Positions 19,114 through 47,605 of a DNA stretch of 64,000 nt are shown piece after piece. Position 1 is the first letter of the stretch. Every line of letters begins with the position of its first letter. Both the position numbers and the translations under genes were made by a program. Under the pieces are notes generated by a model. It saw only the letters and a list, made by a program, of their open reading frames with translations, made no database searches and was not told where the DNA came from. Source of the DNA: Lutjanus erythropterus (lineage: Eukaryota > Chordata > Actinopteri > Lutjaniformes > Lutjanidae); contig CM034603.1 in assembly GCA_020091685.1 (NCBI GenBank), positions 10,336,683 to 10,400,682 of the forward strand. The letters are read 5' to 3'.

Positions 19114-19679
19114 GTTGCCTCTGAGGTAGGCACCTCTGTGTGTGTGCTGTGTGGGTGAGGGTGGAGCAGCTTGTAGCAGCACAAGACTGTGTGAAAGGCT
19201 GCGAGGCAGGAAAAGCTTTTCTGGTTTTCACACTTTTTTCTGTCTTGCAGCTGCAGCTCACATGTTGTGCACGTTTTAAAACCTGAACAATGGCTTTTAT
19301 CTTTCCAAAAGTGAAAGCATATTATTGGCTTTGTTTTTTTTGTGTGTTTTTTGGTTCCTTGTGCAAGTCAGAAAACAGAAAAAAAACCCTACTAATTTAT
19401 CAGTGTTGCTCTACCACCCACTCTGCCATTTTGGTTCTGATAAGCCATGCGTATATAAACATGAACTTTTGACACACAACTTCATGAAATCAAATATTTT
19501 AACTGCAACTGACATATATCAATAGCATGTGAATTTCCACAATCTTTGGTACACAATTATAAACATATGGACTCATCAATTGTATGAGCATGGTCTTTTT
19601 TTGATAAACTCACAACACGTTGAGTTTAAGCAGACAGATTTGTTTTTTTTTATGACATATAAAAAGCAGCAACAGACTG

Positions 19680-20409: not shown

Positions 20410-22365
20410 ATAAGGTGAAAACAGTAGGAGCATGCTGTCATGGCTGATAATAAAACTAGTCCTGCCACTCACCTGCCTCTGGTGCCACAGAGTGTCACAC
20501 AGTGCCACTAGGAGGATCTCGGTGTCTCTCAGTTGCTCACTCCTCTTCACCAGTCAACAGGGACCACAAGTGATTGTGATCCACAACAGTTAGGATAAAA
20601 ACAAGGCTTACTTTGTCTGTTGCAGGCCACATTTTGGCCTTTGTTGTGGCTCAAAAACTGACACCCACAGAAAATTTTGTATTATCTGCACATTGGGACA
20701 CCAAAGAAAGGTAACTACAAGGTAATTGCAATTAGAAGAAAAAAAGACATAAATAGATTATAGATACTTTTAGTAAAAAATTAGGATTATTAGCAGGATT
20801 ACAATTTTAAAAATATTTGAAATAATGAATGATACACTACCATGCACAGTGTGCACACATTACAACACTTCACAACACCATTCTGATGCCAGTGAAACCC
20901 ACTGATGCCGAGATTTTTTGTTCCTCCACTTTCAGGTGTCATGATAATAAAATGGTAACGTTCTAAGCCAGGTATTAAGGTCATCCATAAGGCTTGTCCA
21001 ACAGCACCTACACATGCCAAAAACAAGATACAGTGTAATGTGGTGATGATCTGAGCTCTCCATCTCCAGCTGTGCAAATGCAGTGACAGTCAGTTACTAC
21101 AGTTACAGTAACGCCATGTGTCTCTGTTACTCTGAAACTTTATCATGATTCACAGAAAAAAGGTTTTTAAGTTAGAATAGTATCCAATACAAAATCATGA
21201 ATGTAACTGTACCTCAGTGCTGAAATCTAGTAATATGAGGTTTTACATTTGGTTAAGATACAGGCTGCAAATACATTCTTTCAGAACAAACTCTAAAATC
21301 TCACAACAGATAAAAGGAAGACTCTGGTTAACAGAAGTAGCAGAGTTTTAAATCACTTTCCTCTTCAGTCTCCCATCTAGCACGTAATAAAATGAAGTGT
21401 TCATAAAAAATACATCACCAATAATATGATCCTAGAGCCTCCCCTGCAGGTGAGAACTAGTTTAAAAATGATTTTAAAATAAAATTAGCAAATCATCATC
21501 CTGCATTGGTATTTATCCTTGCCCGTACTTTGAAGATTGCACCACTGGTTAATAGCTTAACTTGTCTGCCAAGATGTCAGGAGATGAACTGTCTTTGTCG
21601 TCTGATCAGAAAATATGTGTGAAGACACCTGTGACACACAGGTAAGTATTAATGCTAGGTCATCCAAAGCTGGTTGTTCCCCCATTTCAAACACATCCAA
21701 TGCCGCCAGTGAAACCAGCTAATCTTACAGTCAGATCACTATCATGACCTCTAGTAAAGAAACGCCTCACTCGGTGCAAAATTCAACTTTATTTTGTCCT
21801 TAAATAAGTGCTGTTTTCAGCTGTGAAAATATTGTCATCATCCAAGAACTCAACATCTAATTTAAAGAAACATTTCCTGGTTGACAAGTAATGTTAGCAG
21901 TTTGAAGAGATTTCTAATTGGTGATGGCTCTTTCTAGAACCAGAGAACCATTTGAAGAACCATAACTTTGAATTTTCTACTGAGTGTACTCTTGTGGTGA
22001 GTTTTTGCTGAGATAAATCTAACAAGAATTCAGAGTATAAAACAATCTATGTTAGATTAGATAAATATAAAAGCATAAAGATCCAAGACACTTGGATGAC
22101 AAAAAGTTAAAAATCCTTTATTCAGATGGAAATTTCATGGTGTCATTCTACAAATATAGACTTTGCTTTGCACATATTAAAATAGAGCTGGGTTACAACC
22201 CATGCATAGTGGCACAAACAGTGTCCTTGAGGTTGTAACCCTCAGAATAGAATTTCCCCTTTTAATTGATACAAGATGATTGCAAACATTTATTAACTGC
22301 AAGCATGTGAAAAAGAAACCCATGAACCCATTTTCTTCATTCAGATTTATAAGGTGAATTATTCC
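19680..22365. other. Copy-A-specific segment, no confident gene
   Basis: This 2.7-kb segment is missing from the second duplication copy. Apart from the CA tract it holds one exon-like stretch on the minus strand (about 20550-20473), ending at a good GTGAGT donor with an open frame (SEQLRDTEILLVALCDTLWH). No start, acceptor or neighbouring exon could be tied to it. Confidence 0.35.
20322..20407. repeat. (CA)n microsatellite, 43 units
   Basis: A pure CA run in the part of copy A that has no counterpart in copy B. Confidence 0.97.
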
Positions 22366-22502: not shown

Positions 22503-24452
22503 TTAGTCTTTGCTGCAATACATAACGTACAGGAATACAAATGCTGAACATACATACACCACCACAGCTTCAAGTTCTGATGTAATTGCCTCGTGCCCAT
22601 ATAGCTGCCTTCCCGAGTTGATGATGATCTGAGCACAGTCATCACAATGTTCCAGAATAGCCTGAGATGTAAACATGCACACATAAACAATTAGGATGAT
22701 TATCAAGAAGAGTAATTTTATAGGTATGTTTACAAAAAAGACTTTAAAAATAGATAAACTCTCTCTATATAAATCTGATACAAACACACAAACTGAACAG
22801 AGAAGCTAATTTCATACCAAAGAAAATAGATGTTACTTAGAACAAAGTTGTTTTGACTAACTCAGAAGCCTTATATAAGCTGCGACTGAAATGGAATTAA
22901 TTTTTACCCAGAACTACTATTGTATATTTTATCCCCGTTTTTAAAGAAGGAAGAGATCACTTCCACTTAACAGCCAGTATGAACAGAAGGAAAATTACAG
23001 CGATCAATGACTCTATAAGTACATATGGGCATCTGAGTATGAGTGCAAAACAGAAAACATGTTAACTGATCCTTTAAATATGTCTTACCAACTGGAATTC
23101 CTCATCTCGTTCAAATCCATCAGTGTCTTTAATGTGCACTTGTCAGGATCCTACAATTGAAGAACACGGACACAAACATACACACATTTAACTGCTTGTG
23201 TGAGCACCTGGCCACAATATGTGTAAAGATTAGAGCTGAGTGAATTCATCCTTCAACCACACTCGCCTTAGGAGTACAATCAGAATTGACACTGAAAATG
23301 AAACAATCACTACCACAAGTCTGAGTGTTGATGGACTTGCCTCTTGCATAAATAGCTTCCATGCCAAGATGAGGTTGAGCCGAGTGTTGCCACCACGCAG
23401 TTTCGGAACAGGCTGCGATGTAAACATGCACACGCATAAACAACTAGGATGATTATCAAGAAGAGTAATTTTATAGGTATTTTAACAAAAAGACTGTAAA
23501 AATAGACACACTATATATAAATCTGATACAAACACACAAACTGAACAGAGAAAAGAATTTCATACCAGAAAAATAGATGTTACTTAGAAAATATGTTAAC
23601 TGATCTTTTAAATATGTCTTACCAACTGGACTTCCTCATTCTCTTCCAAACTGTCCACTAGATCAACCAGGCTCATAAAACTTGTCAGGATCCTACAATT
23701 GAAGAACACGGACACAAACATACACACATTTAACTGCTTGTGTGAGCACCTGGCCACAATATGTGTAAAGATTAGGAGCTGAGTGAATTCATCCTTCAAC
23801 CACACTCCTCTTTAGAGTACAATCAGAATTGACACTGAAAATAGCCTCAAAACAATCACTACCACAAGTCTGAGTGCTGACGGACTTGCTCTTATAAATA
23901 GCTTCCATGCCAAGATGAGGTTGATCTCAAACACGCCATCACGCCGCTTAAGAAGAGCCTGAGATGTAAACATGCACACACATACAATTAGGATGATTAT
24001 CAAGAAGAGTAATTTTATAGGTATGTTAACAAAAAGACTTTAAAAATAGATAAACTCTCTCTATATAAATCTGATACAAACACACAAACTGAACTGAGAA
24101 GAGAATTTCATAACAAAAAATAGATGTTACTTAGAACAAAGTTGTTTTGACTAACTCAGAAGCCTTATATAAGCTGCGACTGAAATGGAATTAATTTTAC
24201 CCAGAACTACTATTGTATATTTTATCCCCATCTTTTACAGAAGGAAGAGATCACTTCCACTTAACAGACAATATGAACAGAAGGAAAAATGACAGCGATC
24301 AATGACTCCTATAAGTACATATGGGCATCTGAGTATGGTGCAAAACAGAAAACATGTTATCTGATCCTTTAAATATGTCTTACCAACTGGAATTCCTCAT
24401 TCATGACAAACTGACCACTAGATCAAACACGCCACAAAAAGTTGTCAGGATC
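22503..24452 (-). repeat. Tandem triplication of a terminal exon pair in copy A
   Basis: In transcript order: X3 24452-24384, Y3 23958-23812, X2 23692-23623, Y2 23412-23230, X1 23150-23089, Y1 22661-22503. Every X has the same acceptor (TTGTAG) and donor (GTAAGA). Every Y has the same TTTACATC-C-CAG-type acceptor and an open frame to a stop (48, 60 and 52 aa for Y3, Y2, Y1). Y2 and Y3 share LNLILAWKLF and a hydrophobic run (LRLVVVIVSFSVSILIVLL in Y2). Y1 has VVVYVCSAFVFLYVMY. Introns are also repeated. Copy B has one X and one Y. Confidence 0.8.
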
Positions 24453-25194
24453 CTACAATTGAAGAACACAGACACAAACATACGAACATTTAACTGCTTG
24501 TGTGAGCACCTGGCCACAATATGTGAAAAGATTAGGAGCTGAGGATTCATCCTTCAACCACACTCCTTGTTAGCTAGGAAGTGGTTGAATGCTAATGTTT
24601 GCTTTTTCTCACTCTCTCATCTTCATCCAGCTTCATCCTGATATGATTGTGTTCAATGTCCTCCTGTACAAAGGAATGAAACATATCAGCATAGTTTAAA
24701 AAGAAAGCACATTTGAAAAGAGAGGATTTTGTAAGTGTTAAGTGTGTCTTAAAACATATATAAGCTCCAGTTCTTTGTCATGCTCTACCTGAATTTCTTG
24801 TTGTGCCTCGATTTTCACTCTGACATCAAGGTATGGAATCTGAAAACAGGAGGTACAAAGCAAACTATAAATCTTCTTATTTCCTCAGGTCCTGGAAGGA
24901 AGCTTTTTTGGTTTTCCCAATAGGTTGCCCCACCAACAAAATTTCCCAAATCGACACGCTCTTTTAATACTCTGTAATTATTCTACTATAATTAACAACA
25001 AAGGTTTTTTTCATCCTACAGGTATGACACTGTGGGCAGCTAAGTCAGTCAGTCTTTTGGTCCACACTAAGTCTGGTGATATGGCAACGGATACTCCAGC
25101 CAGACAGCAGCAGGATGAACAAGCAGTGGCTGGGTGGGTGTTATATTTTAGTATCCTTTGGACCTCCATCACCTCACCTCCTGATGTCACTGAC

Positions 25195-25375
25195 GCTCAG
25201 TAGACAGTTACCTATGATGTGTATACATCTAATGCCAGTTTGTGATGTTTCCAATCACAATGCTTTCTGTTCCTCCTCTATCAAACTCAAAGGTTGTTTT
25301 GTGCCAAACACTCTGAAAGCCTGACTGATGATGGTGGTGTCATCTGTGCCCAAATACCTGCAGCCTCAACTGTAC
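25195..25375 (-). mobile_element. Truncated LINE fragment in copy A
   Basis: This is a short relative of the fragment at 35010-35345 in copy B, with internal deletions. It matches the region before exon 4 in both copies, so it was present before the duplication. Confidence 0.5.
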
Positions 25376-27792
25376 TTTGTGTTTAATGCCAATTATAAAA
25401 TTAGCTCCTGAATAATGTCTCATACGGTGATACAAACCGCAAACATGTGATGGAATTCAGAGTATCATAAAGCACCACAGGAACTTAATTAATTTATTAT
25501 TTGTTTTTACATGATTCCTATAAATTAGACAGGATGAAATACACAGTACAGGAGAAAAACAAATACACACACCTCATCCATGACTTTAGACAGCCTTTTG
25601 AACTGGGGTTCATGTTTTGCCGCCACCAAAAGCTTTGATTTGACGAAGGTAACTGCGCAAATCCTCTTTCTTCAGCTGGTAACTTGAAGAATGCATGATG
25701 TTGTTTCATGCGTGGGAAACCTACACATAGTGGTAAAAACAAAAAACATACAGATGTTTTGAATGAATGAATTGGCTATGTTGGGTTTCTATGCAACCAA
25801 ACATACACAGCTTCACAGCTCATAAATGCTTCACGTTAACCAGGGCTGACGTTAAGTTCTCTACTGCCGCACAAATATTTCAATCCTGCAAGTTAGTCTC
25901 TGTCAATTTACAAACAGGTATCTACATATGAATGCAGATGCACTTATTAAAAAAAGTAATTAAAAGCTAAATTGTCATATGGACTCCAAGATTACATTTT
26001 GTCCATATGCATTCTGCCTCTTTTGCTCTCCACATGGGCTCCATGAGGCTGTTCAGTCAGATGATGACAGATCACAGCCAATAATCTATTCAGCTGGAGC
26101 GGTCAAGCTGCTGTGCAGGTTATGGTCATTCTAAAGCTGAATAAAATAAATGTTGTACTTCTGCCTCAACAATTGTTAATACCACTAAATAACACACTGA
26201 AGATCAGGTTGGGAACCACATTTCTCCTGGCTGCATTTAGTGTTGCTCGAACTATGACCAGTGTGTCTGACTGTAGCTGAGATTTTATCTAAAGGTGTGC
26301 CTCTGTTCACAGGTAGAAAATGTCTGATTTTCATGAAGAATATTAACCCTAGCTTGTAGCCCTCTACCAGCATGCCACAGTAAAGCACATCAATTTTAAG
26401 ATGCTAAAACATTTATCACAGTAATGACAGTATAGCAAAAGTGTTGAGGGCGAATGTGGCGCCTGTGGCAGTGACCACCCACTGCTACTTTTAAGATGAG
26501 TGAACATCCCATGACATATTTATTTCTATATGAAGGTTCATTTCATTTATTGTATGTATGTGTGTAAAATAAGCTTTTACCTCTTTGACACAATCCACCA
26601 ATCTCAAACCTCTTGAAGTGCTTGCATTGAGTCATGAGAGACAGAAATGCAGCAATGTCAAAGTCATCAAGTGATTTATGTCTCTTGTGACCGTCCGCAT
26701 GAACACCTGAAAACAGAACAAAGTATCATTAGTGTGACACAACCAGACCAAAACAACTGTCATTGTCAGAGATGTTATTTACTGCTCAAACAAAAGTGCA
26801 AAACTGTAAACTTACCTTAGCCACTTCCCATTTATCTTCAGACCACAGGTGAGGTTCACTGTTCTCCAATACACCCTTCCACGAGGACTGGTGTGGTTGT
26901 CCCGTATCTCCTTGATCCAACGAGAACACACCGCACAGTCTAAAGGAGGAATCTTTAAACAGACGCAGAAAAATTAGAATCACGTAAAGAAAAAGAAACA
27001 AGTAAAAAAGAAAAAGGCATATTTCAAGACTTAGGCTGCCCTGTAAAAACATATTGTTATAGTAATTCATGGAGATAATGGTTATACAGCTCATACTGTT
27101 GAAGCCCCAAAATGTATTCTAGATTTATTGTTACTTCACTTGGACATTTGGGCCAAAGATGGTACAATCCGATCCAATCAGGGCTTGATAATGACGTAAA
27201 GCCCGATAGTGACATAGCCATCATTAGGTATTGACTCACACTCCTGTGTTCACTGCGATCTCTAATGCCACATGTTTGACACGCACTTCCTGTTTGTAAA
27301 CAGCACTGAGTTCAACAGCGCTTCCCACAACTACTGTGCATTTGCAGTACTAGAGTAATGCTGTACATGCTTTGTAGTGTCATGTACAGATAATAAAATA
27401 AACACAGTTACATGATAAGATGTGATATGTGTTGCTGTCAGCACAAGCAGTAGTTTGTCTATTTTCTTTAATTTCACATAAAATCGACACACATTCTACA
27501 CAGCTGTGTGTGTATGATTGTGCAGGTGACAATAATGCAGTAAATAGCCCAAGTAAAACAAATAACACTGACCCATAGACACTATAAATTAGAAGATTTA
27601 AAAGGAATGCTAGATAATGATTAAAATCAACATCAGGAGAAATATTACTAATAATCATCTATTTTTAACACTTTACAGATCTAAAGCGAATGGTGTCAGG
27701 TGTTGAAATTGTTCTTAAATAAGTGATTGTGTGATGTATGAGTCAGTTTGACAGCAGATACAGCTGTTATCAGCTCTCATTAGTAATTGATG

Positions 27793-28730
27793 TCTAGGTA
27801 TAATATACCCATAACCCCAAAATAATTTTCTGTAGTTTTGATGCTGTTCCATCTGGTATGTACATGTTATTCAGGAATATTGAATAGCCTCAGCCCCTGT
27901 CGATGCTGCCCTGACCCAACTCTGTCTCCATTAGGAAAGTTTGTTTCTCCTCGAATCAAGGTATAAACTCCAGAATTTGGGCTTTGTTTCAGGATGACCT
28001 GGTCTTTATTCCTTCAGCAACATTTTATTGGGGTTTTTGAGCAATGTAGCTTGGAAGAAGGTTTGGTCTCCTTCTAACCATTTAAATTGATTCATAAGAT
28101 TTTATCCAGTGAAGCATTTCATGCAAAAGTTGATATAAAATACTCTTTCAGTGAATTACATCCTGAAACCTGCTCTCATTTATTCTGGTCTTGTAAATTT
28201 ACACATGAATTCTGAAAGATGTTAATAGCTACGTAGTAGACAAGGTTTTCACAGATTTTGCTCTTTACAATGGGGATATTGTATTAGGATGTTTCAAGTA
28301 TTAAGAAATTGATGCAAAATTTTTTCTTATTAATCTAATATTACTAGTTTGTAAATTTCATGTTAATAATGTAAATTTACAAGTAAAAACTAATTCATTG
28401 TTTTAATGAAAGAAATGAAACTTTAATTGAGTCCTCAAAAACAAAAACAAAAAAACATCAAAACTGCCAACATTTGCAAGCACTTTAGTGTTTTAAAATG
28501 AATGTTCTGTCACACTCTTGCATGCTTTATCTATTTATTCTATTTTTATTTATATATACTTTCCTCTTTTTAATTTACTTAAGCTGATTTGTGTTCTCAT
28601 TATGCTTTATATGTGATTCTCCCCATACTGTTATTTCTTCCTCATTGCTTCTTTGCGGTTTGTCTGTTGCTGTCTGTACTTTTACACCGTTTGCAATGTT
28701 ATTGAAATAAACAAATTGTTTTGAAGAAAG
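27793..28730 (+). mobile_element. 5'-truncated L1-type LINE, 3' end, copy A only
   Basis: The interval encodes remnants of an L1 ORF2 C-terminus around 28090-28200 (a His/Cys block such as ETCSHLFWSCKFTH), and then INLILLVCKFHVN around 28335. It ends in an A/T-rich tail with AATAAA near 28705. The same place in copy B (after 'cagtaattggtg', 40216) is uninterrupted. Flanking words 'agtaattgatg' (before) and 'agtagttggcg' (after) look like a worn target duplication. Confidence 0.75.
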
Positions 28731-28801
28731 TAGTTGGCGTTGCTTCAGACTGACGCTAAAGGAACAGATTTATTTATTTCGGAGTTTGGTGTTCGGCGAG
28801 G

Positions 28802-28916
28802 TAGAGGAGAGGAGAGGAGAGGAGAGAGGAGAAGAGAGGAGAGGAGAGGAGAGGAGAGGAGAGGAGAGGAGAGAGGAGAGGTAGAGGAGAGAGAGAGAGG
28901 AGAGGAGAGGAGAGGA
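28802..28916. repeat. (GGAGA)n purine tract
   Basis: A GA-rich pentanucleotide-like repeat just upstream in the plus sense of copy-A exon 1. The equivalent place in copy B is ordinary sequence. Confidence 0.9.
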
Positions 28917-29725
28917 AGCGAGCGGAGGAGACAGTTTATCAAATGAAAAGCACCCTAAAGGTCGAGAGATGATCTAGACACCTCACTTTTGATGCAACAA
29001 CAACAAGAACAAACAGTCATGACACGCCAAACAAACCCTAAAAACCTTTTGTCTGTGTTGGAGAATGTTAAAGTGGCATGTTAACATTATTTCACTGTTG
29101 AATCAACGTCACGGATCATATTGAATCACCACAGAATTTGTCAACGTTGAATTAACAGTGAATTATATTTTGATTTTGAAAGATGAATCAACGTTGAAAC
29201 TGCGACCTTTTTCAACATCTCAAATCAATACAAAGCACATTTCTTACACAGCGGCGATTTAGTGCGCTTCAAACAGAAATAACATCCATATAATAAAAAC
29301 AATTAACAAGAATGAGAAAATACATAAAATAGTAAATAAAAGGGTGTCATTAAAGATAAAATACTGACTTTAAGGCACTTCCGCATTGGTTCGTCTTGTT
29401 CTTCTGACAATAGTTGAGTTACTCTTGTTGGATATTTCACTGGTTAATCACATACACGACAGTCAAGTTTAAGTTCGTACCTGGTTTGGTTGTGGCTTCC
29501 AGTCTTGGAAATGGCATTTCTTGACACACTGATGCGGACCGCATTTACTGCGCAATTCCTGGTGGAAAATGTCAATCTGCTCATCGAGGAAAGGCTCGAG
29601 CAGTCTTAGTGCACCGCAAACTTAAAATGGCTTTTAACCAGTTGTTTGTTTCTTCTGCTTTACCAAATCCCCACACGATGTCCATGTCCTCTTCCTACTC
29701 CAAGTAGGAGAAGACACGCTGTGAT

Positions 29726-31960: not shown

Positions 31961-34900
31961 AGAGATGAAACTACCCAACAGTATGTACAGTTGTTAAAAT
32001 AGGCTTAACAACATTAAGATGCTGCTTATAGACAGTAAGGAACCAGTATTACAATTACAATAATATATATAATAAATATAAATACTTTGAATGCAGTTAT
32101 TTTACATGAGTACTTTTACTTGTGATATTTAATAAGTTCAATTTGCTGTTTTACTTCAGTAAGATTTTGAATGTAAGACTATTTTTAAATTTCATTCTGT
32201 CGTATTTACTGTCTGAAATTGTTGTTTAATTGATGCAATGACCATTGAATGTGTGTGTTTTTACATCAAAATGTGTATTCACATGAGTAGTGAGTCTTCA
32301 GTACGCCACAACACAACACTACATATTTCCCAGCGAGGCAAACCGCAGCCTCTCTACCAAGCGTAGCAGCATGCAGAAAACTGCTGCAGAAATGAACTGT
32401 TGTTCATAGACTATAATTACACAGAGGGGCACTTAACTCATGGTTACCAGTTAAATAATATAAATAAAATAATGTGTGTTATTTCCTTAAATTAACCCTC
32501 TCAGAGTTCATTGATTTTTGTCTTATTTAACACATTTTAAACTGTCCTTATGCCACAAGCATGGTGTCATTTTCTCAGCACAAACTCCGCTGTTTTGTCA
32601 ATTTAAAAAGAATAAAGCTGCCAGGAACAAAAATACCAGAAAATGACACAAACACCTATAAAACAAGTGCGTAGTCATATTCTCAAAATATACTGAGAAA
32701 TTCAAGGTTGTAAAACATGTTGTTTTCCTATTTATACACACAAATACAGCAGACACATGTAGGGAATAAAACCATAATACAGTCTGTTCACATTTGAAGT
32801 GTTTTTTTGTTTTTTGTTTTTAATCCCAACAGTTTTGTGCCTTTTTCACTTAAAGTCTATGTGTGCCTATCAATCATTTAAAATATCAAGAATTCACAAT
32901 TTTACAAATTTCTTTCAAAAATGTTTTTGTTTTATTTTAGAGTACACTAATCATATTAGACAAAAACTTGAAATATCTTTTTAATAAACAGTTTTAAACT
33001 ATTTATTAGCCCATTTATTAGAGGTTAATTAGACATATTACAACAGAACTGAAATCACATACCTGCTACTTCCTCATTTAAAAGCAATATGTGAACCAGA
33101 TCTACCAGTAAAGGCCAAAATGAGAGAGGCAGAGGAATATTTTGTCTGACATCCGGAAATAATACACTTCTCGTTTACAGTACAGTTCTGTTGTGATGTG
33201 TCCTCATTACACTCTTATAAAGTCTATTAGGTCAAATTAAGGTTTTAATACTGTCGAATAAAGAACATCATTTCTAGCTTCTGTCTCATTTAATACAAGG
33301 TAATGCTTAATACATCTCGTTTGTGTGCTGTAACATAAAGAGCGACCAAATGTTGTTTTTGTTTTATGGTGTACTGATTTAGATGAGATACTGTGTAGAA
33401 GGCCCACATCTGCTTCAGTCTCTGGTCTTGTGATCTGTATATTTAAAGTTATTGAATGTTTGAACGTATGTGCTGACATGGCTAGTTGGCCTGACAGGTC
33501 CTTACTGTCATTCACACCTATTCACATATATTAATATGAATAGATCCAAACATTGCCTAAAGATCATACATACACAACTTTATGAAATCAAATATTTTAA
33601 CTGCAACTGACATATGTCAATAGCATGTGAATTTCCACAATCTTTGGTACACAGTTATAAACATATGGACTCATCAATTGTATGAGCATGGTCTTTTTGA
33701 TAAACTCACAACACGTTGAGTTTAAGCAGACAGATTTGTTTTTTATGACATATAAAAGCAGCAACAGACTGACAGCACATCAGCAGCAGCTGTCATACTA
33801 CACTACTTGGTAATTAAAGCTTTTATCCACATACAGAGCAACACCCTCTTCTTAAAATTAACATCTTTAAAATCATATTCAAGATACAATGCTTCATAAT
33901 GCACAGGAGTAAAATCAACCAGAGGCTAACTTCATACTGTCTAAAGCATTCTTACATTCTATTTATTGAAAATAGACTCAAAACAACTGTTGCCACAGCT
34001 CCAGTACTGATGGAATTCCCTCACAAGTTGATGGAGGTCTGATCACTGTTGCGCTGATTCTGAAGAGCCTGAGATGTAAACATGCACACATAAACAATTA
34101 GGATTAACGAGAAGAGTAATTTTATAGGTATGTTTACAAAAAGACTCTTGAAAAATAGATACTCTCTATATAAATCTGATACAAACACACAAACTGAACA
34201 GAGAAGAGAATTTCATACCAAAAAAATAGATGTTACTTAGAACAACAGTCATTTGTTTTGACTAACTTAGAAACCTTATATAAGCTTCAACTGAACTGGA
34301 ATCCATGTTTACCCAGAACTACAACTGTATATTTTATCCCCATCTTTTACAGAAGGAAGAGATCACTTCCACTTAACAGCCAGTATGAACAGAAGGAAAA
34401 ATTACAGCGATCAATGACTTCTATAAGTACATATGGGCATCTGAGTATGGTGCAAAACAGAAAACATGTTAACTGATCCTTTAAATATGTCTTACCAACT
34501 GGTATTCCTCATCCAGTTTTTCTCCTTCAGCTGCTAGTAACTTTGACAACTGAAGCACAAGATCCTACAATTGAAGAACACAGACACAAACATACACACA
34601 TTAACTTGCTTGTGTGAGCACCTGGCCACATTTGTGAAAAGATTAGGAGTTCATTCATCCTTCAACCACACTCCTTGTTAGCTAGGAAGTGGTTGAATGC
34701 TAATGTTGCGTTTTTCTCACTCTGTGATGTTCATCCAGCTCCATGCTGGTATGATTGTGTCCAATATCCTCCTTTACAACAGTCTAAGACAAAGAAACAA
34801 AGCATATTAGCATAGTTAAAAGAAAGCACATTTGAAAAGAGAGGATTTTGTAAGTGTTAAGTGTGTCTTACAACACATAAAAGTTCCAGTTCTTTGTCAT

Positions 34901-35009
34901 GCTCTACCTGAATTTCTTGTTGTGCCTCGATTTCACTTACGATAAGTCTGACATCAAGGTTTGGAATCTGAAAACAGGGAGGTACAAAGCAAACTATGTT
35001 TTTTTATTT

Positions 35010-35345
35010 CCTCAGGTCCTGACGCAGTAGACAGGTACCTATGATGTTCTGAGTCGCTTTAATGACCCTCTTTAGAATCCTCCTGTCATAAGTTGTATAC
35101 ATCTAACGCCAGTTTGTGATGTTTCCTGTCAGGATGCTTTCTGTTACTCCTCTGTAAAACTGACAAGCCTGCTCCACCTCAGCTCCAGTGATGTAGACAT
35201 GGTCATGTCTTTGCCTCCTTTTTCCAAAGATCAACAATCAGCTCCTTGGTGTTGCTGATGTTGAGCAGTAGGTTGTTTTGTGCCAAACACTCTGGAAGCC
35301 TGACTGATGATGGTGGTGTCATCTGTGCCTGAATACCTGCAGCCT
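35010..35345 (-). mobile_element. LINE reverse-transcriptase C-terminal fragment in copy B
   Basis: On the minus strand a frame reads LLLNISNTKELIVDLWKK, like the NTxKTKEMVVDFRR block found near the C-terminus of fish Rex1/CR1-like elements. Further on, ILTGNITNW and DRRILKRVIKATQNIIG match the ESILTxxIxxWYG...RVVKTAQ end. Stops and frame changes make it inactive. Confidence 0.7.
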
Positions 35346-38240
35346 CAACTGTACTTTGTGTTTAATGTTAATTAAAAATTAGCTCCTGAATAATGTCTCA
35401 TATGGTGAGACAAAGAAAATGAAGTTCCCACTAACGGAACTGAGTTCAGAATATGATAAAGTACCACAGGAACTTATTAATTTATTACTTGTTTTTACAT
35501 TCCTATAAATTATTCCTATAAACTAAACAGGATGAAATACACAGTACAGGAGAAAAATGAAAAACACACACACACCTCATCCATGTCTTTAGACAGCCTT
35601 TTGAACTGAGGTTCATGTTTTGCCAGCGCCTCACCAAGAGCTTTGATTTGATGAAGGTAACTGTGCAAATCCTCTTTCTTCAGCAGGTAACTTGGAGAAT
35701 GCATGATGTTGTTTCGTACATATGAAACCTACACACAGTGGTTAGGAAAAAGACCTTATAGATGTTAGTAAATGTAGGGATGAGATTCAAGAATTGGCTA
35801 CATTGTGTTTCAATGCAACCAAACAAACACAGCTTCACATTTATAAATGCTTCATGTTAATGGGGCTGACATTAAATCCTCTACTGCCATACTAGTATTT
35901 CAAGCTGAAATGCACTAATCCTACAAGCTAATCTCCATCAAACTTTATAAACAGATATGAATGCAGATGCACTTTTAAAAAGATAATGAAAGTTAAATTG
36001 TCATATGGGCTCCAAGATTGCATTTTGCCCATATGCATTCCACCTCTTTTGCTCTTGGCATGAAAATACAACCAAAGCTTGCTTAAACATGATTGATCAA
36101 TACTGAGTACATAAACCAGAACACGTCTGACACCAAAATCTTGTCCCTTACCTGCATATTCTGCATATGCACACATCTATTTATAGAGATTAATGGTTGT
36201 GAAACAGGGTTGACTTTAAGTAGGGGTGGGTGATAAGACTAACATATGCTCAAAATATGATTTTATCTAATAAAAACATGTGTTTATTGGCTCCAAATAG
36301 GAATGAAACTGAGGTGTAGTCCTTTTTGAGGAGCAGTCTGCCCCATAATGTAGGTTTATTAGTACATGTAATGTGATTCATTCTCAGAGGTAGACAAGGG
36401 CTGGATTAGGCATCTCAACTGCATTTATTTGATAGAAACCCAAAGTTTATAAATATAAGTACATTAGTCAGTGTACCATGGGGCAGCTGTCAGTACATTT
36501 ACATAGGGCAGCAGCAGACATACAGAACCGGCACAACAGAGGAGCTTTAATTTAACAACAAAACCAGCTGAGCTGCGCTGTAGTTTTAAGTTCCACAAAA
36601 GTAATGCGATGTCCCACATCAACCAACTACTGTCGCTATTTATCAGGCTTCAAATTAGGCTCAGTGTTCACAGGATTTCACTTGACTGTCCCCAAATAGC
36701 CTGTTACAACAATGTGTCTGTATAGTCCCAGTGCCGTGTACAGGAGGGATAATTTTGCCGCTTTTCAACAAGTTGTTTGCTGCCACATTTAAAATCTCAG
36801 ATAAAATTCCAAATAAAAGCCCAAAGCATGCAAGAACACAGAAATTATATTTTATCTGAAACACTTCTGGGTCTACTGGCAGAAGAAGCTGCATACGATT
36901 TACCTTCAACAGTAGGCTGTGGCAAATCTACCCCCAAGATTCCATCCAAAACTAACATCAAGAGAGTGAAAACTATTTTATAGCTCCTCTTTTTAACTTT
37001 GTGATCACTTATTAGGCCGCCTGTATCTGATGCGCAAAGTGCCGGCCTTCTGCTGGACTTGCACACTGTCAGCTCTGAGGGCGAAAATGGAATCTGTCTC
37101 AGCTTAATGGAATGACTTTGAAAACACCAAATGACTTGCTTTAATGAACTTTGTTAGTTTGTAATACTAAACTTAAATATCACTTCCATGATGCTGTTCA
37201 GTCAGATGATGACAGATCACAGCCAATAAACTTTGCAGCTGAAGCAAAGCTGCTGTGCAGGTTATGGTCATTCTAAAGTTGAATAAAATAAATGGCATAC
37301 TTCTGCCTCAACAATTGTTAATACCACCAAATAACACACTGAAGATCAGGTTGGGAACCCACATTTCTCCTGGCTGCATTTAGTGTTGCTCGAACTATGA
37401 CCAGTGTGTCTGACTGTAGCTGAGATTTTATCTAAAGGTGTGCCTCTGTTCACAGGTAGAAAATGTCTGGTTTTCATGAAGAATATTAACCTCTAGCATG
37501 TAGCCCTCTACCAGCATGCCACAGTGAAACATGTCAATTTTAAGATGTTAAAACATTTATGACAGTATAGCAAAAGTGTTGAGGGAATGTGGCGCCTGTG
37601 GCAGTGACCACCCACTGCTACTTTTAAGATGAGTGAACATCCCATGACATATTTATTTCTATGTGAAGGTTCATTTCATTTATTGTATGTATGTGTGTAA
37701 ATAAGCTTTACCTTTTCACACAATCCACCAATCTCAAACCTCTTGAAGTGCTTGCATTGAGTCATGAGAGACAGAAATGCAGCAATGTCAAAGTCATCAA
37801 GTGATTTATGATTCTTGTGACCATCTGCCATGAACACCTGAAAACAGAACAAAGTATCATTAGTGTGACACAACCAGACCAAAACAACCGTCATTGTCAG
37901 AGCAGTTATTTACTGCTCAAACAAAAAGCAAAACTGTAAACTTACTTAGCCACTTCCCATTTATCTTCAGACCACAGGTGAGGTTCACTGTTCTTCCAAT
38001 ACACCCTTCCACGAGGACTGGTGTGGTTGGCCCGTATCTCCTCGATCCAACGAGGACACACTGCACAGTCTAAAGGAGGAATCTTTAAACAGACGCAGAA
38101 AAATTAGAATTCCGGTAGGGTTTGGACGAACATATTGTCTATTGATGTTGGGCTGAATCCATTGCCGATTGCTTTTTGGCTGATTTTAGGCGATATGTGT
38201 CATTTTAATCAGGGCTTGATAATGACATAAAGCCATAGAT

Positions 38241-38446
38241 CAGTTTCCCAACCCTGGTTCCAGGGCCACTGTCCTGCATGTTTTAGATGTTTCCTGCCAA
38301 CACACCTGATTCAAATGATCAGGTTGTTGTCAGGCTTCTGCAGAGGCTTGATGACGAGCTGATCATGTGAATCAGGTGTGTTGGAGCAGGGAAACATCTA
38401 AAACATGCAGGACAGTGGGCCCTGAGGACCAGGGTTGGGAACACTG
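38241..38446. mobile_element. hAT-type MITE, 206 bp, near-palindromic, copy B only
   Basis: The ends CAGTTTCCCAACCCTGG and CCAGGGTTGGGAACACTG are inverted repeats. The whole element folds on itself (for example 'tgcatgttttagatgtttcc' is mirrored). A perfect 8-bp target duplication CCATAGAT lies at 38233-38240 and 38447-38454. The matching site in copy A (near 27200) has no insertion. Confidence 0.88.
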
Positions 38447-39444
38447 CCATAGATGTCTAACGCCACATGTTCGACACATACTTCCTGTTTGTAAATAGCA
38501 CTGACGTCAACAGTGCTTCCCACAGCTACTGTACATTTGCAGTACTACAACAATAACACCTGCTTTTCAATAATAGAAATTTGAGGTGCATTTCATTGCG
38601 CTAAATTTGCTCTCCTTCTCTCTCCTCCGTTGAGCCAGAAGTCGTTTCCCATGATGAAGGATCTTTCAATTGCTTAAATGCACCTGGAAGAGACAAGGAG
38701 GCCTCTGGAGGAGTTCAGAGTGAGGATACACCGGTGTATCCTATGCATTAAAAGGAGAAATGTTGATTGGACAGTTTTGCGACTATCATTCTGGTCATCA
38801 GGACACAAGCAGGAAATCAAATGTGACTGACAGAAGTTTCTGCAGCACTTTAAGGATTATAATAGAATATTTATGTCCTTTGGTGTTACAAAGAGCTCAT
38901 GAAGAAATAACTGATTATGAGCGTTATTAGACTGCAAATCACCACATGTTCTGAAAAATGACAAAAACAGGTAGAAATAAGATTAAAAGGTGTCTGGTAC
39001 AATAATGATTCAGAGATTATAACTGTGGAATCACTGTCACACACATTTTAATGGACTAATCAGGAAAATACCTGTGGCAGTGTGCTTACTTTGTACTGTC
39101 ATGTACAGGATCTACAGATGATAAAACAGAACAGTTACATGATAAGATGTGCTATAATGTCATCATGCGTCAGTATCTAACACTGTATGTTAATTTCACT
39201 GCAAAGAGTCATGGCATCATACAAAGCAGCAGTTTGTCTGTGTTTTTTTGTTTCACAATGAAATCAACACACATTCTTACACAGCTGTGTGTGTATTGTG
39301 TAGATAAATATAATGCAAGTAACTAAATAGCAAATACACTCATCTGTAGCAGATATAAATTAAGAGATTTAAAATGATTATCAAATGATGATTAAAATCA
39401 ACATTAGGAAAATACTCATCTATTTTAAACAGTTTACAGATCTA

Positions 39445-40105
39445 CCGTATTTTCCGCACTATAAGGCGCATCGGATTATAAGGCGCACCTTCAATGAATG
39501 GCCTATTTTAAAACGGTTTTCATATATAGGCGCACCGCATTATAAGGCGCATAGAATAGAAACTACTGTAGTGGCTGGGGTTGCATTATGCATCCACTAG
39601 ATGGAGCTGCGCTAAAGGAATGTCAACAAAACAGTCAGGGTCCCGTTTCCCAGAGCTTCGTAGGCTACGTGCGTCAAGTTGTATTTTAAGGTCTCCTTAA
39701 GGTTACGGGCTGTTTCAGAGTTGGGACAACCCAAGGAGACCTTAAATACAACTTACGACGCATGTACGCTGAAGCTCTGAAAACCCCAGATAAGTCAGTC
39801 AGTTGTTGAATTCTTCCGCGCTGCTCTATTCCCATGTTCTTCTGCATGACTGATAGCCTTGAGTTTGAACTCTGCGTCGTAAGCGTGTCTCTTGAAAGGT
39901 GCCATTCTGGGGTCTTTATATACACACAAGTGGTGTGGGACTGAATTCCTTTACTTTTTACCGCTGTTACTTCAGCGACGCCCTGACTACGGTAGCCATA
40001 ATTAACAATATTGATATATATAAGGCGCATCGGATTATAAGGCGCACTGTCGGTTTTGAGAAAATTAAAGGCTTTTAGGTGCGCCTTATAGTGCGGAAAA
40101 TACGG
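39445..40105. mobile_element. Mariner-like non-autonomous element, 661 bp, copy B only
   Basis: Terminal inverted repeats start CCGTATTTTCCGCACTATA, continue through GGCGCA-type words, and close with the exact complement before position 40105. TA lies on both sides (39443-39444, 40106-40107). Copy A shows the empty site 'cagatctaaagcg' near 27680 with a single TA. Sub-repeats 'ataaggcgca' recur inside. It has no transposase. Confidence 0.85.
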
Positions 40106-40803
40106 TAGTCAAATGCTGTCAGGTGTTGAAATTGTTCTTAACAAGTGTTTCTGTGGAGATTCGTATCAGTCATTTTGACAGCTGATACAGCTGTTATCAG
40201 CTCTCATCAGTAATTGGTGTGGTTTCAGACTGACGATGAATGGAACCAAGATTTTTTCCCATTCATTTCAGTTTCTGTTTCTCCGTCCTCGCGTCTCTAC
40301 CTTTCATCCCTCTTTCACGTGCTCGCAATTTACAGAATGAAAAGCACCCTCACTCTTGATGCAACAGTAACAATATTTAAGGACAACAAGGACAAATAGT
40401 CATGACTTGCCAAACAAACCTAAACAAACTTTTGCCTGTGTTGACAATGTTACATCAGTGGCTTTAAGGCACTTCCGCTTTGGCTTAGCTGAGTTCTTCT
40501 TGTCTATTTCACTGGTTAATCACATGCGTACGACAGTCAAGTTTAAGTTCGTACCTGGTTTGGTTGTGGTTTCAGTTTTGGAAATGGCATTTGACACACT
40601 GATGCGGACCGCATTTGCTGCGCAATTCATGGTGGAAAATGTCAATCTGCTCATCGAGGAAAGGCTCGATTTTCTTAGTGCACCAAACTTACAGTGGCTT
40701 TAAACCAGTTGTTTCGTTCTTCTCCTTCGGCAAATTCCTGACGATGTCCATATCCTCCTCACAGACTAACAAAGTAGACTTTAAGGAGAAGACGCGCTGT
40801 GAT

Positions 40804-43786: not shown

Positions 43787-44298
43787 TTATTCTTTGGCCT
43801 CCAGTGAGTTGATGGCTTGGAGCTCTGAGGAAAACCTCTCGGCCAGATCTCTGTTGGCCTGCAGGAAACCACTCAGCCTCTTCAACTGCTCAGTGTCCTA
43901 AGGAGGAGGCAGAGGGTCAGCTGAAATCATGTGGCATCTTTATTTCTATGTACTGTGTCTAAACATGTATCATGTAACATCTGTATTTGTTCATCGCACC
44001 TGTGTCTTTGCATCATCATCATCATCAGCAGCAGTAGCATCATGCAGTAGCTCCTGCAGCCTCTCCTGTAGCAACTCAGCCTCCCATTGGCTGATTAAGT
44101 CAGCGCTGATCTCCCACTGACTTATAGAATCATGCTCTAATCTACCCGGGTCAGCAGAATCCATTCGGTCCAAACCAGAGACACATATTGACAAATCAAC
44201 AGTCAGCATCTGGACAAACAAAACACAGACTGTGACACAAAACAACATTAATGCAACTGAGAGCTTCCAAACACAGGACACATTTCAGCAGCGGTGGT

Positions 44299-44371
<73 letters not shown>

Positions 44372-47300
44372 CACGCTCACCTCCTCTATCTGTCGGCCAA
44401 CTGCTGCCATCTGTGGCACGTGCCTAAACTGCTGCACAACGTTCTTCAGAGCGATCTGGTAGTGCCTCATCCATTCATCCTTCACACGGAACTCACAAGA
44501 ATGCATCAACTCATTCCTGAAATGGATCACCTGGAACCACACAAACACACACACACGTTACAAAACATCATCATCAAATTCCAGCATCCTTCTCTGGACC
44601 ACCCTTACAAACACAAAGCACTTCAGAAATCACTCCAGTGTTTGGCTGAATGGAAATGAAATCAATTTTATTGACTGAATTTTATCTGTGAGAAATAATA
44701 ATAGACCAATCAGTTTTCTAATCACTGTTGTATTTGCGGTACCTTCATTATTCTTGAAGTGTGTAACATTTAGTGTGTCAATATTACCTGAAGCAAACAT
44801 GAAAAATAGATTTTCTGTGTCACCAGCTGAATGCATGTACAAAAAAACCTACAACACGATGCATACAGTTTCAAAATTAATACAGAATCCATAAGGACCG
44901 AAGTGTCTTCCCAAACTTTCAACAGCTGTCTCAACTACGGTAACTACTGACGCATTTAGCTGATGGTCGCAGTTCAACAGGGTCACTCGATAATCTGAAA
45001 CACCGGGTTTTAAAGGTAGCATAGCATGTCCATTTGAAATGTGGCTGTTTACCTCTCTCACACTTTTTAGATCCACAGACTGGAAATAATCACAGTAGTT
45101 GATTAGGTTGAGCAGAGCAGAGGCATCACACTGATCTGCCCCCGTCTTTTTCCCCTGACCCCGTGGCATGTAGGCCTACAGAAAGACAGACACAGAGAAG
45201 AGAACTTCATTAGGCTCACACATTCGGGTGAAATCAGATTCTTCAGAGGACTTTTCAGTAGGGGTGCAACTAACGATTATTTTCATTGTTGATCAATCCG
45301 TTGATTATTTTCTCAATTAGCTGATTAGCTGTTTGATCTATATTTGTGAAAAATGTTGATCAGTGTTTCCAAAAGCCTGAGAAGACGTCCTCAAATGTCA
45401 TGTTTTTCTCATAGCCCAAATCGTCATGAGTTAACAGACAGATCTCAACATTTGAACAGCTGAAATCAGAGATTACTGACAGTTTTTCACCATCCAGCGG
45501 CGTTGAGCTAGCTGCTACATAACTCACAGCCACATTTCCCACAAACCTCATGGCTTTTGATTTACTGTTTTGTGGCATAACACATTTAAGCATATTTGCT
45601 GTGAAATAAAAAATGAAAAGTAACTGTCAGTGGTTGAGTGTGTTCATGGCAACCATCCTACTGTAACATGTAGAGTTGTCACAATACCAGAAGTTTAAAC
45701 TTTGATACAATATGATTATAAAAAACTATACCTGATACCTCCTCTGACGCCACAGCAAAAAGAAAAAAAAAGCTCCTCAGCACAAACGAAAAAGGAAACA
45801 CCGAAAGAACACTTGCATCTTTTATATTAACTTTAGTACTTTCCACACTATAATTAACAGATATTGTATCGTATTAGACTCAAAGTATCAAAAAAGTATC
45901 TAAGTATCAATATTTCTGATTACCTTAATGTCATACGTGATGTCATAATGACCTGATGATATTAATACTTGTCATAGTTAGTAAAAGTTCAGAGAGTGTG
46001 TGTGGAGTGGTGTGTGAACTACCTTGGCCAGTTCCCAGTGGTCTGTTCTCCAGTGGGGAGGAAAACAGTTGTCCCAGTTCACCGTGGCGTCTGGCTGTCT
46101 GTGGTGTCTCAGGATCACTGTCTGCCACTCTGAACACGCCCTGCATGGTGAGGAAAGCTACACACACAAACACACACTTTTGGTTGGTTGGTTAAAAAAA
46201 CACAATATGAACAAACTATGAACTGAACTATATCGGTGTTGTAGGCATCCAAAATTGATTCATGGCTGTAAGATCAACTGCCCCTGAGTCACACTGCCCA
46301 ATGCAAACACCTTGTTTGTCTGTGTTGATCAACTTTTCTGTTGAACATAAACATATTTAACTAAATTTACATGTGAAATTACTTTAAACTTATTTCAAAT
46401 AATTAAAATCTAGATACCACTTGAGTACTTTCCTAGTCTTATACAAAACAGAACTAGATCAGCTGCTCCTCAGTGTACCAAAAACTAAGCTCAGAGGTGA
46501 CGATCTGGAACGATCTGCCTCTCCACATCTCTGTCTGTTTTTAAATCCCATCTTAAAACCCATGTATTCTCCTTGGCTTTTAACACCATGTGAGATGTTG
46601 AATGTATTGTTATTTTTATTTTATTGTTTATTTTATTCATATATATTTATTTTTATTTGGTTATTGTTCTACTTTTATTGTTTCAAATTGTATAGCTGTT
46701 TTATGTCTTTTAATCTATTCTTGTATTTTATTTCTGTACAGCACTTTGGCCCACTGTGGTTGTTTTAAAGTGCTTTACAAATAAAGTTGGATTTGATTGG
46801 AATATAAATATAAATTACAAATTGAACATGGATGAAAAAGGGATGTAATAAATAAAATACTGCATGTAAAAATCAATCAATCAATAAAAAATTCAAACAA
46901 TCTGCATTATATTCTATAAACAGCATAAATGGCAATACTGATGTAGACCTCAATATAGGTGTGCAGGCCAATATCAGACCCATAATAATGACTTGCTCAA
47001 ATATTGGTTGGGCTCTAATAGTACAGCAGTAATGTGATTTCTTCCAGGTGTCTTTTATAGATTCCTTGGGTTGATATGTGTTCTTTTCAGTGTTACAACT
47101 GCCCCTAATTACTCCAAATTCCCCCATCAATGGGGTGTGACTTATTGTATTACAATTAATATGACAGTCTTGTCCTTAGTGAAATATATCAATTATCTTA
47201 TTAACTAGTGCACATACACGTTATTTGTATCAAAAGAGGAGTTGTGTTTAAGTACTCAGTGAGTTATGAGGGGAAACACAAACAATGTTACAAATGCTCC

Positions 47301-47605
47301 TGGTCTCCCCTATCTCAGTCGCTCTGTAGGAGCTTCACGGCCACATTAAGTGCCATAAAGAAAAAACTTAAATAAAGACTAAACTGAATTTACAGACTAA
47401 CCTTAGTCCCTCTCGGTCTGCATGAAGCCTGACACGGTTTCCTGAGCAGAGTGTTTCTGTTGAGCAGGTCTCCGTGGAAAGCTCTCATGTGGTGGTTGAT
47501 GAAGGGATGCAGACCCTCCCTCAGTATCTGCAGACACCGAGCCGCTTTCAGCCAGTTCTTGTACTCTCTGTCGTTCAGACGGACCGCCAGCTCCTCCAGA
47601 ACCAT
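43787..47605 (-). CDS. cxorf38: CXorf38 homologue (DUF4559) with HEPN-type RNxxxH motif, complete
   Basis: Exons on the minus strand are 47605-47402, 46157-46023, 45175-45053, 44530-44381, 44209-44000 and 43897-43787. All are phase 0, totalling 933 nt (310 aa plus stop; human CXorf38 is about 319 aa). The protein starts [20 protein letters not shown], closely matching the human start. Exon 2 has a CxxC-plus-HH set (CRACSEW...LRHH) and HWELAK. Exon 3 has YMPRG and [16 protein letters not shown]. Exon 4 has FRNELMH, the R-N-x-x-x-H signature of HEPN domains. Exon 5 is acidic with a predicted coiled-coil ([15 protein letters not shown]) and an Asp run, and exon 6 ends [11 protein letters not shown]. 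The cellular role is not known to me; a HEPN RNase or RNA-binding function is inferred from the motif only. The start has G at -3 and +4. There is no membrane segment. Confidence 0.93.
44300..44368. repeat. (CA)n microsatellite in CXorf38 intron 4
   Basis: A pure run beginning 12 bases past the exon 4 boundary. In transcript sense it is (TG)n close to the donor site. Confidence 0.95.
45260..45450 (+). repeat. Interspersed repeat in CXorf38 intron 2
   Basis: It starts 'ggggtgcaactaacgatt' and includes 'gacgtcctcaaatgtc', wording of a dispersed fish family that I recognise. The right boundary is uncertain. It is not coding. Confidence 0.5.
46430..46805 (+). mobile_element. L2-type LINE 3' end in CXorf38 intron 1
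   Basis: A frame here holds a worn RxWNDLPLxxRSxxSLxxFKxxLKTHLF-like end. It is followed by an AT-rich tail with 'aaagtgctttacaaataaag', the usual L2-type 3' terminus in fish. The 115-codon open frame at 46421-46768 is part of this remnant. Confidence 0.7.

What the first reader, a model, noticed from the sequence alone, without database searches (positions are those of the whole stretch)
22503..24452. Terminal exon pair triplicated in tandem, each with its own membrane-anchor-like tail
Copy A has three X-Y exon pairs where copy B has one. All six exons keep the same splice signals. Each Y exon has an open frame, but the tails differ (52, 60 and 48 aa) with distinct hydrophobic segments. This layout would allow mutually exclusive C-termini. 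The X exons now carry length changes or stops, so the array may be a fossil of an alternative-tail system.
Basis: seen in the sequence. Interest (0 to 1): 0.75.

Follow-up and report, generated by a model that had tools for sequence, protein, structure and literature searches.

The report
Triplicated tail exons, dead fish gene
In a fish genome, a broken copy of a CXorf38-type gene carries its last two exons three times in a row; the exons differ far more than the introns between them, so they look like once-diversifying protein tails that are now a fossil rather than a working switch.

Summary
On the minus strand, 24452-22503, copy A of a CXorf38/DUF4559 gene has three X-Y exon pairs where copy B (34564-34021) has one. 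Nine of nine splice sites are kept, and the Y frames run 48, 60 and 52 aa with hydrophobic stretches. A and B are paralogs of an intact CXorf38 gene C in the same window. Both carry frame lesions upstream, so "fossil" is well supported. Synonymous sites differ too, so amino-acid selection alone does not explain it. I favour old tail-coding exons with introns homogenised by gene conversion, then gene death. Closest patterns: tandem-duplicated 3' exons and exon segment switching in snake venom genes. No cross-species or RNA test was possible.

The parts
24384..24452 (-). exon X1 of copy A (69 nt, stop in frame 0)
23812..23958 (-). exon Y1 of copy A, 48-aa open frame plus stop, hydrophobic tail
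23623..23692 (-). exon X2 (70 nt, stop in frame 0, open only in frame 1)
23230..23412 (-). exon Y2, 60-aa open frame plus stop; its last residues lie in sequence homologous to intron 6
23089..23150 (-). exon X3 (62 nt, length not a multiple of 3)
22503..22661 (-). exon Y3, 52-aa open frame plus stop, hydrophobic tail
22503..29685 (-). copy A, CXorf38/DUF4559 paralog (exons predicted by homology), frame lesions in exons 1-4
24613..24663 (-). exon 6 of copy A, last constant exon before the array
22289..22294 (-). first AATAAA downstream of Y3 (another at 22122; variants TATAAA 22351, ATTAAA 22266)
34021..40751 (-). copy B, single X-Y pair, lesions in exon 1 and at the end of exon 2
34496..34564 (-). 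exon X of copy B (69 nt, open in frame 0)
34021..34068 (-). exon Y of copy B, TGA after 15 codons, in-frame hydrophobic remnant behind it
43787..47605 (-). gene C, intact CXorf38 gene, six exons, 310 aa

Best explanation
The array is the 3' end of a dead tandem paralog (A) of the fish CXorf38 gene, a predicted HEPN-type nuclease. A segment from intron 6 to the end of the last exon was duplicated in tandem, giving three X-Y pairs (shown by the alignments; B could instead have lost units). The Y exons probably once encoded short hydrophobic, tail-anchor-like C-termini that stayed open while their sequence diversified (inferred). Introns between units, and between A and B, were kept alike by gene conversion, while the strongly diverged exons resisted it (inferred). 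A and B then lost their reading frames upstream, and the X exons lost theirs (shown for predicted exons), so the array is now a fossil. If several tails were ever used, the simplest way is choice of the 3' splice site with one shared distal poly(A) site (inferred).
For: Units and B aligned. Introns differ at 4-9% and exons X plus Y at 25-46% of sites, odds ratios 4.5-13.3, p 1e-8 to 1e-27 in 6 of 6 pairs (sites are not independent, so p is overstated). Exons 1-6 of A and B are 84-97% identical, so the excess is at the tail. A/B noncoding divergence is patchy, 0-19% per window, and B against A3 intron 7 has a 143-site identical run (p 0.0012), as conversion would give. The three A-unit Y frames are open in phase 0. 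B keeps an in-frame hydrophobic remnant after its TGA. A and B carry lesions that differ while C is intact.
Against: No RNA or related species could be examined. pN/pS in Y is only modestly above 1 (0.49/0.38, 0.47/0.27, 0.18/0.14, hand codon alignment), so positive selection is not demonstrated. The run-length signal of conversion is significant in 1 of 6 pairs. In 6 of 6 pairs exon divergence exceeds the most diverged A/B noncoding window (19%), and synonymous sites are diverged too, which conversion explains only if the exon variants are older than the A/B split or exons evolved faster. X exons show no retained frame in A.
Confidence: 0.58

Rival explanations
1. Neutral fossil only: the triplication arose in or just before a dying gene; the Y frames are open and hydrophobic by inheritance and chance, and exon divergence is old age seen against introns homogenised by conversion.
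For: X1 and X2 have stops and X3 shifts the frame; pN/pS is near 1; hydrophobic open stretches are common here; A and B are broken upstream.
Against: Neutral simulation gives an open and hydrophobic (KD 2 or more) descendant in 0.5-3.6% of runs (substitutions only); exon divergence exceeds every A/B noncoding window in 6 of 6 pairs.
Confidence: 0.24
2. Recent exon-limited segment switching: units are as young as their introns, and short blocks inside exons were replaced by unrelated or copied sequence, as reported for snake venom genes (ASSET).
For: Differences are block-like in A1-A2: Y head 15/36 against rest 8/102, p 1.5e-5, the rest matching the intron rate. Synonymous sites are diverged. 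X1 and Y1 share a 12-mer; 151 of 20000 sets with shuffled X exons hold any X-Y 12-mer.
Against: Exact 13-mers of the variable blocks occur elsewhere in the window once (21056), and the whole-unit DNA search found no further unit. No mechanism is known. The 12-mer alone is modest evidence, and the cut of 36 bases was chosen after looking.
Confidence: 0.12
3. Live alternative-tail gene: A is expressed and chooses between tails, skipping the X exons.
For: Exon 6 to Y1, Y2 or Y3 directly is in frame for all three; poly(A) hexamers lie at 22294 and 22122.
Against: A has frame lesions in exons 1-4 and a stop at the RNxxxH arginine; no poly(A) hexamer after Y1 or Y2 before the next X.
Confidence: 0.04
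4. Assembly or sequencing artefact.
For: Some lesions are single-base losses in short runs of one base.
Against: Gene C beside it is intact over 310 codons; multi-base exon differences with similar introns are not a sequencing-error profile.
Confidence: 0.02

Closest known systems
Tandem-duplicated exon substitution events with alternative C-termini (PMC9741552, passages seen: 77 of 236 human events swap C-terminal regions; TPM1 has three tandem 3' exons)
   Same: Tandem copies of terminal coding exons; terminal events often coincide with transmembrane helices
   Different: Those are mostly ancient and expressed, with mostly conservative changes; here a two-exon unit in a gene with broken frames, exons changed drastically
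ASSET, exon segment switching in snake venom three-finger toxin genes (PMC2474615: abstract and one section; PMC2711939: passages)
   Same: Introns highly alike, exon blocks very different, mechanism said to be unknown
   Different: Here within one gene's exon array, outside venom, in broken copies, with frames lost in X
Drosophila Dscam exon 17 array (start of abstracts in the listing; that exon 17 carries the membrane segment is recalled)
   Same: Tandem alternative exons with membrane segments
   Different: Internal and mutually exclusively spliced; not terminal exons with stops
CXorf38 / DUF4559 family, HEPN superfamily (PMC3710099, passages)
   Same: B and C match the Pfam model; A is homologous to B by BLAST
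   Different: Gene C ends without a hydrophobic tail as read from its sequence (the Pfam model was not examined for this); A and B are broken

Membership tests
CXorf38 / DUF4559 (PF15112) | match to the Pfam model | tested here: met
   B exons 2-Y E 7.2e-45 (read across one lesion); gene C E 7.5e-72, model positions 1-287 of 305. A itself was not scanned; it matches B by the protein search and blastn
CXorf38 / DUF4559 (PF15112) | HEPN RNxxxH motif (recalled) | tested here: inconclusive
   present in B (RNNIMH) and C (RNELMH); in A the arginine codon is TGA
Tandem-duplicated alternative terminal exons | tandem homologous exons with kept splice sites | tested here: met
Tandem-duplicated alternative terminal exons | each copy gives an in-frame product with the upstream exons | tested here: not met
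   5 of 6 exon 6-X-Y paths stop in X, 1 of 6 enters Y3 in another frame; upstream exons broken
Tandem-duplicated alternative terminal exons | expressed, mutually exclusive isoforms | not testable with these tools
   no RNA data
ASSET-like exon segment switching | exon blocks far more diverged than conserved introns | tested here: met
ASSET-like exon segment switching | functional protein fold kept | tested here: not met
   A and B frames are broken; Y hydrophobicity kept
Tail-anchored membrane protein | single C-terminal hydrophobic helix | tested here: inconclusive
   KD 2.08-2.82 over 19 residues, but no intact protein and no topology test

The most novel reading that the evidence does not exclude
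Exon-limited rewriting outside venom genes: short blocks in the last exons of a fish HEPN-nuclease paralog were replaced, partly by copying between exons X1 and Y1, while introns a few bases away stayed nearly unchanged, giving a tandem cassette of diversified membrane tails.
Probability: 0.1. Interest if true: 0.8.

Novelty: new variant of a known kind. Interest (0 to 1): 0.42.

Why it matters
A three-unit array with similar introns and very different exons is a compact natural record of how terminal exons diversify. It could separate amino-acid selection, intron conversion and exon-limited block change within one 2-kb locus, and it hints that a predicted antiviral RNase family may have gained membrane tails in a fish lineage. 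If exon-limited change were confirmed in living relatives, it would extend a still unexplained venom-gene phenomenon to an ordinary vertebrate gene.

Tried and rejected
Homology of exons X and Y to the last exon of gene C: not supported, 1470 of 2000 shuffles score as well for X+Y, 990 of 2000 for X alone, 1141 of 2000 for exons 5-Y against C's last two exons. Donors for the variable exon blocks elsewhere in the window: one exact 13-mer, at 21056, outside the two arrays. Other X-Y units in the genome: the 2101-base array gave 20 matches: itself, B, 4 weak matches to intron 7 and 14 short matches to intron 6; the tool scores best candidates only. Solved structures for B at E up to 1: 0. Rfam at gathering scores: 0; ARAGORN: 0. 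Y tails in Pfam at E up to 1: 0 families for 3 of 3. Amino-acid selection alone as the cause of exon divergence: rejected because synonymous sites are also diverged (14.2 of 37.5 for A1-A3, 10.0 of 36.4 for A2-A3, 5.3 of 37.6 for A1-A2; shared fourfold sites 4/10, 3/8, 1/20). Of 26 papers naming CXorf38 and 2 naming DUF4559 in the held library, no title in the listings concerns fish or tail exons; I read passages of one of them (PMC3710099). Structure prediction was not run because no intact protein carries the tails.

Full report
Setting. The window is C13:10336683-10400682 of a 938-Mb genome in 444 contigs. Three minus-strand genes of the CXorf38/DUF4559 family lie in tandem. Gene C (47605-43787) is intact: six exons, each a multiple of 3 in length, 310 aa, matching PF15112 at E 7.5e-72. 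Copies B (40751-34021) and A (29685-22503) are a diverged pair whose exons I predicted by homology and splice signals; B exons 2-Y match PF15112 at 7.2e-45. Whole-genome searches with B exons 2-4 (7 matches, all in A and B), with the A array, and with C (6 matches, all in C) found no further copy. This is weak evidence of absence: the B query did not return C and the C query did not return A or B, so a paralog as distant as that could be missed. Passages of PMC3710099 assign CXorf38 to the HEPN superfamily, call it active and suggest a role against RNA viruses.

The array. Copy A has X1-Y1, X2-Y2 and X3-Y3 where B has one X-Y. Nine of nine splice sites are kept, which the intron similarity would largely predict. 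The Y frames are open for 48, 60 and 52 codons in the phase set by exon 6. The unit runs from intron 6 to the end of Y: Y1's stop and the last residues of Y2's frame fall in sequence that aligns with intron 6 of the next unit. A2 lacks about 220 bases of intron 7.

Exons against introns. In all six pairwise comparisons of B, A1, A2 and A3, introns differ at 4-9% of aligned sites and exons X plus Y at 25-46%; Fisher p runs from 1.2e-8 to 1e-27, overstated because neighbouring sites are not independent (by region). Exons 1-6 of A and B, by contrast, are 84-97% identical, exon 6 the lowest. In X the change starts about 8 bases after the acceptor and stops about 17 before the donor; in Y it starts in the first bases. 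In B against A3 it ends some 40-50 alignment columns beyond the A3 stop, so it is not strictly limited to coding sequence. In the closest pair, A1-A2, the first 36 bases of Y differ at 15 sites and the remaining 102 aligned bases at 8, the latter being the intron rate (the cut at 36 was chosen after looking).

What this does and does not show. Synonymous divergence in Y is also high: pS 0.38 for A1-A3 and 0.27 for A2-A3, against intron 7 differences of 13/422 and 14/208; for A1-A2 it is 0.14 against 16/207. Selection on amino acids alone would leave synonymous sites at the intron level, so either the exons are older than the introns look, or exons changed in blocks. A/B noncoding divergence is patchy, 0-19% in windows of 53-150 sites. 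B against A3 intron 7 has an identical run of 143 sites (p 0.0012); the other five pairs show no significant run (p 0.20-0.62). I favour conversion of introns with diverged exons acting as barriers, and keep block switching as a rival. X1 and Y1 share a 12-mer; 151 of 20000 sets in which the four X exons were shuffled hold any X-Y 12-mer on either strand.

Were the tails coding? For: the three frames are open in one phase. The only gap that MAFFT puts in the Y region compared among A units is 3 nt; a further 6-nt gap appears only in my hand alignment, which was made in whole codons and so cannot show it independently. All three tails keep a hydrophobic stretch although Y3 differs from Y1 and Y2 by 37-39% up to the B stop. 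B keeps a frame-0 hydrophobic remnant (22 aa, KD 1.41) behind a TGA; its gaps against A2 and A3 are 3, 20 and 1 nt, 24 in sum. Neutral simulation, substitutions only and starting from an open frame, gives 0.01-0.07 for three open frames at 20-25% change per branch, 0.003-0.01 at 40%, and 0.5-3.6% for one open and hydrophobic descendant at 40-43% change. Against: pN/pS is only 1.2-1.7, and hydrophobic open stretches are common in this window. I put a former coding role at roughly two in three (judgement).

Is it alive? A carries frame lesions in exons 1, 2, 3 and 4; the arginine codon of the RNxxxH motif (motif recalled) is TGA. B has several length changes in exon 1 against A, a stop in its exon 1 frame, and a one-base loss at the end of exon 2. 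None of these lesions was shown to be shared, so separate deaths are likely, but an older shared lesion in exon 1 is not excluded. Exon 6-X1 and exon 6-X2 stop after 9 residues. Exon 6-X3-Y3 is open for 82 residues, in a frame other than the hydrophobic one. Only exon 6 joined directly to a Y reads the tails. None of five poly(A) hexamers lies between Y1 and X2 or between Y2 and X3; B has AATAAA at 33967, and A has AATAAA at 22294 and 22122. Mutually exclusive terminal exons, each with its own 3' end, are therefore not supported.

Known kinds. Tandem duplication of 3' coding exons is well described: passages of PMC9741552 report 77 of 236 human events at the C-terminus and three tandem 3' exons in TPM1. 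Conserved introns with switched exon blocks are described for snake venom three-finger toxin genes (PMC2474615 abstract and one section; PMC2711939 passages), whose authors call the mechanism unknown. What is unusual here is the combination: a repeated two-exon unit, exon-limited divergence inside one gene, hydrophobic tails on an HEPN-family paralog, and both copies broken.

Limits. No related species, no RNA and no population data could be examined; the genome search for the Y2 tail did not complete.

Noticed in passing
18961-19227: SH2 exon (Pfam SH2, E 2.5e-7; SH2D1A-like is recalled) in a 660-bp stretch (18814-19473) absent from the B-side duplicate, where 33571 and 33572 are contiguous in the alignment.
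   Followed up: partly
15136-16994: About 1.86-kb inverted-repeat element; eight arm pairs, 86-96% complementary.
   Followed up: no
24567-24599: About 32 nt of intron 6 found at 93-100% identity at 14 other listed places in the genome; 2 of them looked at (L014, L015) match the window over 39 nt at 95%; probably part of an interspersed element.
   Followed up: partly
22967-23040 and 24270-24336: Piece of intron 7 that matches four other places in the genome at 79-82%; an old interspersed repeat.
   Followed up: partly
38297-38384: Small palindromic element in intron 1 of copy B, 44-nt arms, 84% complementary.
   Followed up: no
4107-5208: Open stretches resembling a cytokine receptor (a WSxWS-like motif, recalled); no Pfam match at E up to 1 for the two stretches scanned.
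   Followed up: no
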